NCBI GenBank assembly: GCA_037833965.1
Contig: AP031355.1
Coordinates: 11,929,501 to 11,993,500 of the forward strand
Reading direction: 5' to 3'
From: Marchantia polymorpha subsp. ruderalis
Lineage: Eukaryota > Streptophyta > Marchantiopsida > Marchantiales > Marchantiaceae
DNA length: 64,000 bases
The position numbers and the translations under genes are program-made. Shown in pieces: positions 52,423 through 57,648 of this stretch (the stretch's first letter is position 1; each line of letters starts with the position of its first letter). The notes under the pieces are model-generated. The model saw only the letters and a list, made by a program, of their open reading frames with translations, was not told the origin of the DNA and did no database searches.

Positions 52423-52622
52423 TGTTCCCACTTTTGGTATTTTTGCGGAATTTAAAACATTTTTGGAAAACTGTACCACGGCAGCAGTGTAAATAGCCAT
52501 CGGTGCATCAAAATAGAGTGAAACTGGATGATCTCGGAGAATCTCGTAAAATCTCGTAGAATCCAGGAGTTGGGCGCAACGTCTGGGACAGACGCCGCCC
52601 TAAACGACGGGCTCTGAAGGAG

Positions 52623-53365
52623 TACCCCTTCGGCGCAAGGCGCATAATCCGCCTTCGGCGCTACGCCCTCGGCGCTAGAGGAATCCCTCAGAATCTAAGC
52701 ACTTCCCAAACTCCTTGACTTGGTTAGGGTTTCGTTGGAAAGAGCTTGACGCGCTGGTTCTAACGAGCCCAAGAACGCCCAGAATGGATCAGGACTCAGG
52801 GAGTTGTGACGGTCGAAAGATACGAAGACCTTCGCCTACGCATAGGCGAAATAGGGTTTGACGTCGGCGGGGAGTCCGCCGAGAATGCCGCCTACGCATA
52901 GGCGGGGAGGACTTGCACCTACGCATAGTCGAACGGAAATCGCCTACGCATAGGCGATTCGGCCTCGGCGGGAAGTCCGCCTTCGGCCCTAGAAATCCGC
53001 CTTCGGGGTTGGAACTTGTACGGCGCCTTTGGCGCCAGTGCATCACGGTTGGGTGAGGACCCAACGGAGTAGTAAAATCCGTACGGATCGTACGGACGGA
53101 ACGGACGAGTGCGCCTCCGGCCGGTCGGGGTTACGGAGACAAGAGCGCCGACGGAGAGGCGAGAGAGATGGAAAGACTGGACGGAGTCCGTTGACCGTGG
53201 TCAACGCCTTTGGCACAGCCGCCTTCGGCGCTGCGCCTACGGCGAGGAACCTGCGCGGACGAACGTCCTGTGTGCGGACGAACGCTTTCGGCAGAGCGGG
53301 ACTAGCCAAATTGAAGTACGAATGAGTGTAGCGCGTCGGCGAGAAATCCGCCTTCGGCGCTGCGC
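52623..53365. repeat. cluster of short CGCCT..GGCG palindromes (5' part)
   Basis: The long form CGCCTACGCATAGGCG is at 52833-52848, 52889-52904 and 52941-52956, with a variant at 52916-52931. The short form (G)CGCCTTCGGCG(C) and close variants with CTCG or TTTG centres recur near 52626, 52651, 52664, 52978, 52998, 53022, 53205, 53221 and 53349. The long form can pair 6 bp around a CGCA loop, and the short form 4 bp around TTC. They lie before ORF1 and so do not depend on coding. Confidence 0.85.
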
Positions 53366-53794
53366 GACCATGGCCGCGGCGTGGTACGCTGGCGGAGTTC
53401 AAATTACCAATTTGAGCGTGTGAGTGAAGTCGGCGTCGGCGGAGCGTGAAGCCGCGCGTGAGAGATAAGGCCGTTATACCGCGGAGCCGGCGCGGCCATC
53501 AAGTGATTCGACTTTCACGACCGAGAGCCGACCATGACATCCTGCGAGCGGACAGAGGACGCCCCATTCTTGAATTGACGATTTCAATTTCTGGTGCGAG
53601 CTGCGCGCGTCCACCTTCTAGCTGAGAGACGTTCTAGACATCACCGCGCGGAGAGTTACTCGGTGGCTGAGCAAGAATTGAGTGCGCGACATTTGGAATT
53701 GAGAGAGATTAGAGTTTGCAGAGGAAACAAAATCGCGAGCAAGAGGCTCGGGCAGAGCAGAGAGAGAGTTGCGCAAACCAATTTCAAGAACGCG

Positions 53795-54553
53795 ATGTCG
53801 AAATTGATGAGGCTGCGGATGGTGCCACTCAAGCTCCCGCAGAATGGGCTGCTTGCCTTTGAGGACCGGCTGATTACAAGGAAACTCGAATTCTTGCTGT
53901 GGGGATGGAATTACGTGTGCGCAGACATGGTGCGCGAATGGCTGGACGAGGAACGACCACCTACGCGCGGATTGCGTCCGCACGTAGATAGATGGACTGT
54001 CCGCGATTGGGGACAGGCATTGGGGAGGTGCGCAGGTGAGGACGGGTACCTCCTGTTCGACAGTGAAAGCGTCAAGGTAACGAAGCAAGAGGAAGCCTCC
54101 TTCGTGGAATTATTCAAGCGGGAGAGGTCTTCCAAGAACGGGTACAGGACACGCGACTACAAAGATCGTTTCCGCAGGACCGTAGCGATGGTGCTGCTGC
54201 AATTGTTGCAGCCGCACCGCACTACGTACATCACGCTGTGGCAGGTGTTCTTCGTAGAGCTCACATTGGCCGGAGCTCCAGTTCACTGGTTGCGTATCCT
54301 GCATAGGGTGATGCGACAGCATGCGTTTGAGAAGCGGGGAGGAACTTTCAATCACCTCTTCCCCTTCTTGATAAATTTTTATAGGGAGATGAATTGTTTA
54401 ACTGCGGCCGAGCGTGCTCGATTTCCGCCATTGTCAGTCGATTATCCCGGGAGGTATGTGCGGGATAACGAGGTAGACATCGACGCGGAGGATTTGCCGA
54501 CTTCCACTCCACCGACTCAACAGGATGCGGGGAGAGACACACCCGCAGTGTGA
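53795..54553 (+). CDS. ORF1 of the nested element, unknown (plant transposon-protein-like?)
   Basis: A 252-residue ORF from the ATG at 53795; the frame stays open upstream to about 53594. The protein is basic and Trp/Arg-rich. Features are LEFLLWGWNYVCADMVREWL near residue 33, then YKDRFRRTVAMVLLQLLQP, LTLAGAPVHWLRILHRVM and FNHLFPFLINFYREM. The spacing of a helical block, a small-residue turn and a FPxLI-like block recalls the plant transposon-protein (Transposase_32 / plant-mobile-like) domains of extra ORFs in plant retroelements. That is resemblance by eye only. The C-terminus is acidic and Thr/Pro-rich. A TGA at 54551 is followed by an open frame in the same register. Confidence 0.55.
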   Translation: MSKLMRLRMVPLKLPQNGLLAFEDRLITRKLEFLLWGWNYVCADMVREWLDEERPPTRGLRPHVDRWTVRDWGQALGRCAGEDGYLLFDSESVKVTKQEEASFVELFKRERSSKNGYRTRDYKDRFRRTVAMVLLQLLQPHRTTYITLWQVFFVELTLAGAPVHWLRILHRVMRQHAFEKRGGTFNHLFPFLINFYREMNCLTAAERARFPPLSVDYPGRYVRDNEVDIDAEDLPTSTPPTQQDAGRDTPAV

Positions 54554-55246
54554 GTGCCGCGGAAGCGAAGATGGAGAGAGGAACCGGAGAAAGAGCGACA
54601 TCAAGAATCAGCTGCTCTCACCCGGAGGCGGCCACTGCACGAAGTCTGCAGCCGGCCGAAGCAGAAGGCGCGTAGGCTTTTGTTACCGGCCAGCAGCGCG
54701 GAAACGGCGACGATCGCCACAGAGAAAGGAAGTCCGTCCCCGGAGAAGGATGGGACTACGCGGACGGCCGAAGGGGCGGTAGACCACCCTACGCATTCGG
54801 CGGAAGAGAGACGACCTTCGGGTCAGGAGTTAGCACGTGCGGCGCGGATGAGTGTGCCGCCTACGCATAGGCGACTCCCTGTGGATAGGCGACCCCTTGC
54901 GGACGTGGATTTGTGCCTACGCATAGGCAGAGAAAGTTTGCCTACGCATAGGCGGGTGCCTACGCATAGGCAGGACTCACCCCCGGTACAATGCAGGAAG
55001 GGTAAGGAGCGGGCGGAAGATCCGCCTTCGGCTCAAGGGCCTTCGGGACAAGGCCCTCCGGCGGAAAGAGCGCCGGGATTTGCGCCTTCGGCGCCAGGGC
55101 CTTCGAGCCAGCGAGTTACAACCAGAGAGCCGGCGGAAACTACGCCTTCGGCGGGAAATCCGCCGGAAGACGCGCCTTTGGCGAAAGGGCCTTCGGGCCA
55201 AGGGGCATCGGGCGGGCCGCCTTCGGCTCTACTGCCTTCACGGTAG
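54554..55246 (+). CDS. in-frame continuation of ORF1, low-complexity Pro/Ser/Arg region
   Basis: This 230-codon stretch is in the same reading frame as ORF1, separated from it only by the TGA. It is rich in Pro, Ser, Arg and Gly. The embedded palindromes create repeats such as PTHRR and (A)PSAxGPSGQG. It is probably a disordered linker of a longer ancestral protein, either interrupted by a single stop or read through. There is no ATG near its 5' end, so an independent start is unlikely. Confidence 0.4.
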   Translation: MPRKRRWREEPEKERHQESAALTRRRPLHEVCSRPKQKARRLLLPASSAETATIATEKGSPSPEKDGTTRTAEGAVDHPTHSAEERRPSGQELARAARMSVPPTHRRLPVDRRPLADVDLCLRIGRESLPTHRRVPTHRQDSPPVQCRKGKERAEDPPSAQGPSGQGPPAERAPGFAPSAPGPSSQRVTTREPAETTPSAGNPPEDAPLAKGPSGQGASGGPPSALLPSR

Positions 55247-55307
55247 ACGCCTTTGGCACTACGCCTTCGACGGATGAAGCGCCGGAAATTGCGCCTACGC
55301 GTAGGCC
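54858..55307. repeat. cluster of short CGCCT..GGCG palindromes (3' part)
   Basis: Long forms are at 54858-54873, 54914-54929, 54939-54954 and 54957-54972 (edge bases C or T). A version at 55292-55307 has a perfectly palindromic core, CCTACGCGTAGG. Short forms (CCTTCGGC, CCTTTGGC, CCTTCGAC) recur about every 15-40 bases from 55020 to 55270. Confidence 0.85.
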
Positions 55308-56525: not shown

Positions 56526-56662
56526 CAGGGTAGAGAGTTAGTGCGCGGCAGTCCGTCGCGCAGGAGGCGAAGCACAGGTTCTGCGGAGTGTAGTGTAGCG
56601 TGGTTCCGTGCAGGCGCGTAGCGTAGCATAGTACAGTGTAGTGCTAGTTAGGACTTAGAAGG

Positions 56663-56669
56663 TATAAAG
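56663..56669 (+). promoter_or_regulatory. TATA box of the nested element
   Basis: TATAAAG about 140 bases after ORF2 and about 980 bases before the element's 3' end. If the element is a single LTR, this would mark the end of U3 and the start of R, placing the ORFs inside U3. Confidence 0.45.
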
Positions 56670-57071
56670 TAGTTCAAGGCGTCTTGCCTTGGGATTTTTC
56701 CAGTTTCGGAAGTGCAGATCAGGAACTCATTTTCTTTGCGTGTTTGTGTCCTTAGTTCTGTCACCACGCTAGAGGAGCTACATCTTAGCGATCCGCATTG
56801 TGTAGCTGAAGGCCTTCGTCCGAATGTTCAGAGCTAGTACATTGGTTAGAGACTTGAGTAGTTCGGATCTACACTTGCGGGTGATTGCCGATGCCTAGAG
56901 CCAGTGACGAGTTAGATACTTGAACAGTTTCGCCCCTACACTTTCGAGTGATTGTTCATGATTGTACTCCTTCGGGATTTTTCCCCTGAATGCCAAAGTG
57001 AAGTTTTGCTACTTCGTGTAAGCCTTGGTTGTAAATTCAGGTTACGCTGCAGCAGGTGCCTTGAGGGTAAC

Positions 57072-57560
57072 CCCTGTAGTATTTTTGGGAATGACAAGTG
57101 CCTAAGAATTCAAACTCTTCAATAGACTGTTATGGTGTGTTACTGGAACGTTTCTCAGTGAGTCCTTCCGTGCGGACCTGTGTTCTCTACGCGTTTTGTG
57201 AGTTGAGAGTGTTGTTCACCGCGTGTGAGTGACTTCAATCCGAAGTAGGAAGTCCAAACCGGGTTCCCTACGCTAGCAGAAAACTAGTGGAAGGGTTGTA
57301 AAAGCCGGAGTTGGGAGTCACTACCCGCAGCTTCGCTGAGTGTACTCGCGAGAGACTTTCCCCCTGAAATCTTGAGTAGAGGTCCCAACCGATTTCTGGG
57401 TTGTGTTTTTGTAGTTTCAGGTGTGTGTGTGTGTGTGTGTGTTGAGTGAACTACGTTGCACTGTGCGACCTCCGAGTGAGCTCCGAGTGAACACTTGTAG
57501 TATTTCTAGGAGTGACAGTCGCCTTAGAATTCAAACTTCTCAATAGTCTGTTAAATGTGA
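57072..57560. repeat. internal diverged duplication in the element's 3' region
   Basis: About 65 bases at 57077-57140 and 57496-57560 are similar: TGTAGTATTT, GAATTCAAACT and CAATAG.CTGTTA blocks in the same order. The copies flank a TG microsatellite. Confidence 0.7.
57421..57442. repeat. (GT)n microsatellite
   Basis: About ten uninterrupted GT units, seen directly. Confidence 0.85.
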
Positions 57561-57648
57561 CACTTTGTACCCTGTGTGTTCCTCTGTCCCTGTGGGTTCG
57601 ACCTTTCTATCACTATATTGCAGTTTTAGCCTTTAGTGGGTTATTACA

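What the first reader, a model, noticed from the sequence alone, without database searches (positions are those of the whole stretch)
52423..57648. A 5.2-kb TG...CA insertion with a 5-bp TSD but no terminal repeats: a giant coding solo LTR?
Seen: the TCCAC duplication, TG/CA ends, an uninterrupted empty site in the sister LTR, no RT/IN/RNase H, no repeated ends, a U5-like CCTGTGGGTTCGACC near the 3' end and a TATA box about 1 kb from it. Known: TG...CA with a 5-bp TSD marks LTR-retroelement integration; solo LTRs arise by LTR-LTR recombination; LARDs with multi-kilobase LTRs exist in plants. Inference: this is one 5.2-kb LTR carrying at least two ORFs in U3, an architecture I do not know from plants.
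Basis: partly seen in the sequence, partly recalled or inferred. Interest (0 to 1): 0.78.

Follow-up and report, generated by a model that had tools for sequence, protein, structure and literature searches.

The report
Giant solo LTR encoding a protein
In what is probably the liverwort Marchantia, this stretch is one 5.2-kb end-repeat left behind by a jumping gene, and unusually the repeat itself carries a long, selectively conserved protein gene, an arrangement not found described for plants in the papers searched here.

Summary
The finding holds. Window 52423-57648 is a solo LTR with a 5-bp TSD (TCCAC); the host's sister LTR shows the empty site. In other copies the same 3' end is followed by a tRNA-Asp-like PBS and gag-PR-RT-RH. 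The same 5' end is preceded by integrase and a polypurine tract. So the insert is the LTR of a Ty3/gypsy element. Four further solo LTRs, one a diverged 4.1-kb one, have TSDs. Exact patterns find 5,767 LTR 3' ends, and 1,211 ends followed by the PBS leader.

One correction: the 'two ORFs' are pieces of one broken gene. Relatives show one protein: N-domain, proline/serine-rich hinge, coiled coil, ending just before the LTR's TATA box. Diverged LTRs keep it under purifying selection (dN/dS 0.11-0.33 where measurable; shifted frames 0.9-1.9). No believable Pfam relative; every named homologue listed is Marchantia polymorpha. Plant extra ORFs described in the texts I read lie in the internal region. 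Expression and function are inferred; an accessory protein placed like MMTV Sag is most likely.

The parts
52418..52422 (.). left target-site duplication TCCAC
   Evidence: empty site in sister LTR
52423..57648 (+). solo LTR, 5226 bp, of a Ty3/gypsy element
   Evidence: ends shared with other copies; PBS follows the 3' end and PPT precedes the 5' end in copies with an internal region
52651..53358 (+). leader with short GC-rich hairpin motifs (GCCTTCGGC, CCTACGCATAGG), one orientation only
53795..54550 (+). N-terminal domain of the LTR-encoded protein (252 aa from ATG; stop-free from 53579); in-frame stop at 54551-54553 in this copy
   Evidence: dN/dS 0.11 vs L074
54554..55243 (+). hinge part of the same protein, same frame as the N-domain, proline/serine/arginine rich and containing the hairpin motifs
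55401..56522 (+). frame of the C-terminal coiled-coil part (coding signal from about 55560, less regular than in the N-domain); stop at 56523-56525 in this copy; a relative (P0001) runs on past it
   Evidence: dN/dS 0.20-0.33 vs L074, 0.22 vs L086
56662..56669 (+). GTATAAAG, candidate core promoter of the genomic RNA; start of R inferred about 30 bp downstream
   Evidence: GTATAAAG in 26 of 30 loci; TATAAA also in L074 and L086
56690..57648 (+). R-U5 (inferred), about 0.95 kb
   Evidence: position relative to TATA and to the PBS that follows the LTR end; its start is inferred
57649..57653 (.). right target-site duplication TCCAC
61979..62356 (.). sister LTR of the host retroelement with the uninterrupted (empty) site at 62157-62161

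Best explanation
The insert is a solo LTR, made by recombination between the two ~5.2-kb LTRs of a Ty3/gypsy retrotransposon (LTR-PBS-gag-PR-RT-RH-IN-PPT-LTR). Its U3 carries one long sense gene (helical N-terminal domain, hinge, C-terminal coiled coil; my estimate 750-930 codons) that runs from about 1.4 kb after the LTR start to just before the TATA box of the genomic RNA. Shown: ends, TSDs, PBS and PPT adjacency, gag-pol domains in between (on different copies), one-frame organisation in relatives, purifying selection. Inferred: the LTR-LTR recombination itself; that the gene, being in U3, lies at the 3' end of the genomic RNA and is present in both LTRs after reverse transcription; that it is made from a subgenomic RNA, or from a promoter in the first kilobase of the LTR, as a regulatory or accessory protein acting for the element in trans, like MMTV Sag or foamy-virus Tas in position. 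The window copy is dead, broken by stops and a frame change.
For: TSD and empty site. TSDs at four more solo LTRs: AACAG, TCACT, ACTTA, CACAT on a diverged 4.13-kb LTR; positions rechecked. PBS directly after the LTR end in 4 of 30 loci; exact pattern of 3' end plus leader 1,211 times, against 5,767 exact 3' ends. IN, then 37 bp, including the purine tract TTGA(G/A)GAGGGGAGCA directly before the LTR start, in 3 of 3 loci. gag, zinc knuckle, RT, RNase H and integrase by Pfam; protease only below its cut-off. The two LTR parts of the C1 element are 97.0% alike over 2.1 kb, against at most 94.2% over that length to the six other copies compared. dN/dS of the LTR gene 0.11-0.33 where dS is not saturated, shifted-frame controls 0.9-1.9. 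N-domain and hinge in one frame in 10 of 30 loci. N, hinge and coiled coil in one open 673-aa frame in L087, and in one frame with stops in L086.
Against: No two-LTR copy was read from end to end; the structure is put together from junctions of different copies. The C1 copy lacks integrase and the first 75 bp of its 3' LTR, and its 5' LTR start was not where expected (L070 has no LTR match). Another suspected two-LTR pair (C4:21.53 Mb) proved to be nested inverted LTRs. In none of the 30 ORF1 loci, which reach only into the first part of the coiled coil, are N, hinge and coiled coil together in one open frame. Among close copies third-position excess is only moderate (changes at codon positions 1/2/3: 389/470/576 in the N frame, 29 copies; 544/397/744 in the coiled-coil frame, 21 of 29 copies with enough cover). 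In the window/L074 scan two bins of the coiled-coil stretch lack the excess. The PPT count (221) is far below the PBS count (1,211). No expression data.
Confidence: 0.88

Rival explanations
1. A LARD or other non-autonomous element: long LTRs that carry only passenger sequence, mobilised in trans.
For: Long LTR, thousands of ends, most without the exact PBS leader; stops and frameshifts in many copies.
Against: LTRs related to the window's (94% for the C1 copy; 83-96% in the main pieces of L071-L073) flank gag-pol domains; the LTR gene is under purifying selection across subfamilies.
Confidence: 0.05
2. The conserved gene is a captured host gene or a separate element lodged in the LTR, not a part of the element's own programme.
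For: No counterpart known to me in other gypsy LTRs; protein without a Pfam family.
Against: Present in related LTRs diverged to about 65-78% DNA identity: in the window and L086 with both LTR ends and the TATA box seen, in L074 with the TATA box but a rearranged start, in L087 with neither end resolved. Named homologues listed are all Marchantia polymorpha, and the genome gives 10,217 first-look candidates (82 scored).
Confidence: 0.12
3. A protein-coding insertion of another class (DNA transposon, Helitron, LINE) that happens to have TG...CA ends and a 5-bp TSD.
For: The interval alone has no RT or IN and no terminal repeat at the sensitivity used.
Against: PBS and PPT abut these ends in other copies.
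Confidence: 0.01

Closest known systems
Mouse mammary tumour virus sag (LTR-encoded superantigen)
   Same: A gene inside the LTR, separate from gag-pol (PMC11998498 calls Sag an LTR-encoded protein; passages; its place in U3 is recalled).
   Different: Vertebrate retrovirus, LTR and gene much shorter, unrelated protein (recalled). Here a plant Ty3/gypsy element with a 5.2-kb LTR and a gene of roughly 750-930 codons.
Plant LTR-retrotransposons with additional ORFs (Athila, Bagy2, Grande, RIRE2, Retand; Vicient and Casacuberta 2020)
   Same: Extra gene beside gag-pol, in all or most copies, usually without homologues outside the elements.
   Different: Those ORFs are described as in the internal region, mostly between pol and the 3' LTR (PMC7264820, outline and part 1 of 3). 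Here pol ends 37 bp before the LTR start and the gene lies inside the LTR.
Retrosat2/FRetro3/RIRE3/RIRE8 of rice
   Same: Unusually long LTRs (over 3.2 kb for Retrosat2 and FRetro3, about 3 kb for RIRE3 and RIRE8) and an extra ORF of unknown function (PMC3485330, abstract and passages).
   Different: ORF0 is described as lying upstream of the gag-pol ORF.
Orchid Ty3/gypsy elements with an AlkB-type demethylase ORF
   Same: An extra ORF that acts on the element's own RNA, a precedent for a regulatory accessory protein (PMC12786077, passages).
   Different: Known enzyme domain; nothing in the passages places it in the LTR.
Sukkula-type LARDs of cereals
   Same: LTRs of about 4-5 kb (recalled).
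   Different: LARDs lack coding capacity (recalled); here internal region and LTR both encode proteins.
[not shown]
   Same: Gypsy elements without a second RNase H in this genus (PMC10508981, passages).
   Different: Whether this family belongs there was not tested; no LTR-encoded gene appears in the passages I read.

Membership tests
Ty3/gypsy LTR retrotransposon | gag, then pol order RT-RH-IN between LTRs, with PBS and PPT | tested here: met
   Pfam gag PF03732 (L014), CCHC, RVT_1, RT_RNaseH (L069), Integrase_H2C2 and rve (L071), on pieces of two copies; PBS, PPT
Solo LTR | Single LTR, TG...CA, flanked directly by a 5-bp TSD, no PBS, PPT or internal region | tested here: met
   ends match LTR ends of copies with an internal region
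LARD (large retrotransposon derivative) | Long LTRs around a large internal domain without coding capacity (recalled; PMC9033089 passages, give non-autonomous, internal sequence over 4 kb) | tested here: not met
   Internal region encodes gag-pol domains
Chromovirus | Chromodomain at the C-terminus of integrase | tested here: not met
   No chromodomain at E <= 0.01 in the one RH-IN frame scanned, L071
Tat (classical, with second RNase H) | Additional RNase H domain | tested here: not met
   None beyond the RT-linked RNase H in the protease, RT-RH and IN pieces scanned; feature per PMC6317226 (passages)
[not shown]
   No reference RT set was at hand; an Asp-type PBS would be compatible (tRNA identity recalled)
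LTR-encoded accessory gene (MMTV sag kind) | Conserved sense ORF in U3 upstream of the genomic promoter | tested here: met
   ORF ends before TATA; purifying selection; that this TATA is the genomic promoter is inferred
LTR-encoded accessory gene (MMTV sag kind) | Expressed from a subgenomic or internal-promoter RNA | not testable with these tools
   No RNA data

The most novel reading that the evidence does not exclude
The LTR is a self-contained gene cassette. Each LTR, solo ones included, can make a trans-acting protein that works for the family, for example by activating transcription or countering silencing through the strand-specific hairpin repeats clustered in its own leader and hinge. 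Solo-LTR formation would then multiply regulators instead of killing the element.
Probability: 0.15. Interest if true: 0.85.

Novelty: new variant of a known kind. Interest (0 to 1): 0.62.

Why it matters
It moves an accessory gene of a plant retrotransposon into U3, so that a two-LTR copy carries it twice and a solo LTR still keeps it. Solo LTRs are usually treated as dead regulatory scars; here many are remains of a conserved protein gene, probably in a model plant with easy genetics and small-RNA/methylation tools. It makes testable whether an LTR-borne protein controls transcription, silencing or copy number of its own family. It also warns gene annotators: 108 of the 120 rows listed are Marchantia 'hypothetical protein' records resembling this LTR gene.

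Tried and rejected
Codon-position test on close copies against the window (sums): third-position excess only moderate, as expected for copies that decayed after insertion, so diverged LTRs were compared instead. A supposed two-LTR element at C4:21.53-21.55 Mb was fetched, but the left flank is an inverted LTR, so it was dropped. The C1 5' LTR start was not found where expected. Pfam on the LTR gene: nothing convincing for the window ORFs, 24 aligned proteins or 56, only scattered hits to one or two members. AlphaFold of the N-domain: mean pLDDT 49.9 and 51.9, too low for a fold search, so none was run. A recalled likeness to PF20167 (Transposase_32) was sought in the genome: no match, but the control rang nowhere, so this says nothing. 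Splicing between 'ORF1' and 'ORF2' was considered and dropped, because N-domain and hinge share a frame and L087 reads through. tRNA search at four PBS-complement sites found no tRNA gene, so tRNA-Asp as primer is recalled, not shown. The sigma-70 scan of the leader is not meaningful for a plant.

Literature: 10 searches (one search was for MMTV) of CC-licensed PMC papers. In the listings, and in the passages of nine papers that I opened, I found no plant LTR described as encoding a protein. Subscription papers are not held, so this is not proof of absence.
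Full report
WHERE. The window is G000:C6:11929501-11993500 of a 241-Mb genome in 9 contigs. Every named homologue listed for the insert's proteins is Marchantia polymorpha subsp. ruderalis (45 rows, 34, 120 of 131 shown; the remaining rows are unnamed 'lgn' proteins).

OBSERVATION. 52423-57648 (5226 bp) starts TG, ends CA and is flanked by TCCAC. The host element has a sister LTR at 61979-62356 to which both flanks align, with TCCAC once. At E <= 1e-5 the insert has no terminal repeats. 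Its three longest frames have no Pfam domain (one weak CENP-K hit, E 0.53, below cut-off).

IT IS AN LTR. Other copies share both ends. Of 30 loci chosen by the 3' end, 4 (L014, L019, L026, L030) have after GGGTTATTA(CA) a leader and primer-binding site, TAAGAAGCCGACAACTTCTTTTTGGCGCCGCTGCCGGGGACAG or a near variant; the others go on into differing DNA (one search shows minus-strand loci at their wrong end, one search turns them). After this leader L014/L069 encode gag, zinc knuckles, protease (Pfam below cut-off), RT and RNase H. That copy then jumps into its 3' LTR at LTR position 76, lacking integrase. Three further RT-bearing loci (L071-L073) carry integrase frames (Pfam run on L071 only; L072 and L073 read the same protein in broken frames) that end ...KKYHV. 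From the stop it is 37 bp to the LTR start TGTGGTACCCCAC, the last of them TTGA(G/A)GAGGGGAGCA. The two LTR parts of the C1 element are 96.95% identical over 2.1 kb; the window and five other copies reach at most 94.25% over that length against L014 (one 516-bp piece elsewhere in L026 reaches 95.9%). The element is therefore LTR-PBS-gag-PR-RT-RH-IN-PPT-LTR with about 5.2-kb LTRs, and the window insert is a solo LTR. No copy was read end to end.

TSDs. Besides the window I examined both ends of one LTR at four places: C9:6948410-6953694 AACAG, C2:25765326-25770576 ACTTA, C3:4443553-4448468 TCACT and C7 L086:707-4840 (4134 bp) CACAT; 4 of 4 have a 5-bp TSD. The pair at C4:21.53/21.55 Mb was not one LTR or element and was dropped.

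NUMBERS. Exact patterns, both strands: 3' end 5,767; 3' end plus leader 1,211; 5' end 4,056; PPT tail plus 5' end 221; PBS complement 1,240; backward controls 0 in each. The PBS and PPT counts disagree, so the solo fraction is only roughly known. If each leader marks one 2-LTR element, over half of the 3' ends are solo or truncated. Two variants of the 3' end (CCTTTAGTGGG, CCTTTGGTGGG) are counted together, so the number covers more than the window's own subfamily.

THE GENE. (a) The hinge frame 54554-55243 is in the frame of the N-domain, separated by one stop. (b) Judged by sequence motifs, N-domain and hinge are in one open frame in 10 of 30 loci, hinge and coiled coil in 2 of 30. (c) Third-position excess in the window/L074 alignment continues past the window's stop at 54551 to about 54720, and recurs in the second frame from about 55560 past the stop at 56523, less regularly: two bins (55683, 55923) lack it. 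(d) Predicted Marchantia proteins read N-domain, hinge and coiled coil in order (P0014, P0035, P0061, P0065); these are gene models and may contain invented introns. (e) L087 has all three in one 673-aa open frame; L086 has them in one frame with stops between. (f) In one search several copies (e.g. C7:10338280, C7:9098447, C7:483998, C4:8807387, C3:998445) have N, hinge and coiled-coil matches in one frame by my arithmetic on the listed coordinates; that search may favour matches in one frame. The gene ends just before the TATA box: 22 bp before GTATAAAG in L086; in the window the box is at 56662, and the gene's end near 56600 is my estimate from the relative P0001.

SELECTION. N-domain, window vs L074 (77% aa identity): dN 0.142, dS 1.315, ratio 0.11 (0.15 with the stretch before the ATG); L086 vs L087: 0.28. 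In four of six N-domain pairs dS is saturated and no ratio can be given; in those pN (0.24-0.37) is far below pS (0.74-0.81). Coiled coil: 0.33 (window/L074; a 65-codon end piece 0.20), 0.22 (window/L086), 0.26 (L074/L086). Shifted-frame controls 0.92-1.91. The stretch upstream of the ATG gives 0.48 (68 codons). The protein has therefore been kept by selection across LTR subfamilies, although many sampled copies of the window subfamily are decayed.

WHAT IT DOES. Unknown from sequence. No Pfam match of weight; AlphaFold predicts helices at low confidence. My inference: a U3-encoded accessory or regulatory protein. Supporting only weakly: short GC-rich hairpins (GCCTTCGGC 8 to 0, CCTACGCATAGG 7 to 0 on the two strands) occur in the leader and the hinge but not in the N-domain, coiled coil, the gag-pol pieces or the first 52 kb of the window. 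The UUCG type recurs in L074 (9 to 4, part of L074 being rearranged), L086 (4 to 0) and L087 (4 to 0), the other only in the window's subfamily (no shuffling control was run). Such one-strand bias would fit an RNA-level role or simple hairpin expansion in tolerant regions.

Noticed in passing
window 52651-53358 and 54859-55227: Short GC-rich hairpin motifs (UUCG-type GCCTTCGGC; CCTACGCATAGG) in one orientation only, restricted to the leader and hinge of the LTR.
   Followed up: partly
G000:C1 about 2.18-3.28 Mb: Positions of PBS, LTR ends and LTR-gene copies recur with offsets of roughly 360-410 kb (my arithmetic on the lists), so long stretches of this 5.6-Mb contig are segmentally duplicated or assembled repeatedly.
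   Followed up: no
L080 (C4:21533150-21533450), L002, C3:18187611-18188691: LTRs sit next to each other as tandem or head-to-head inverted copies.
   Followed up: no
proteins: About a hundred Marchantia 'hypothetical protein' records (108 of the 120 rows listed), and Mp_8g15400 (P0015), resemble this LTR gene: a transposon in the gene annotation.
   Followed up: no
window 57069-57132 and 57490-57553: A 64-bp stretch is duplicated (81%) inside R-U5; L014 and L035 have it too.
   Followed up: no
window 57979-58521, minus strand: The host element encodes what looks like a Copia-type RNase H next to the interrupted LTR (motif recognised from memory).
   Followed up: no
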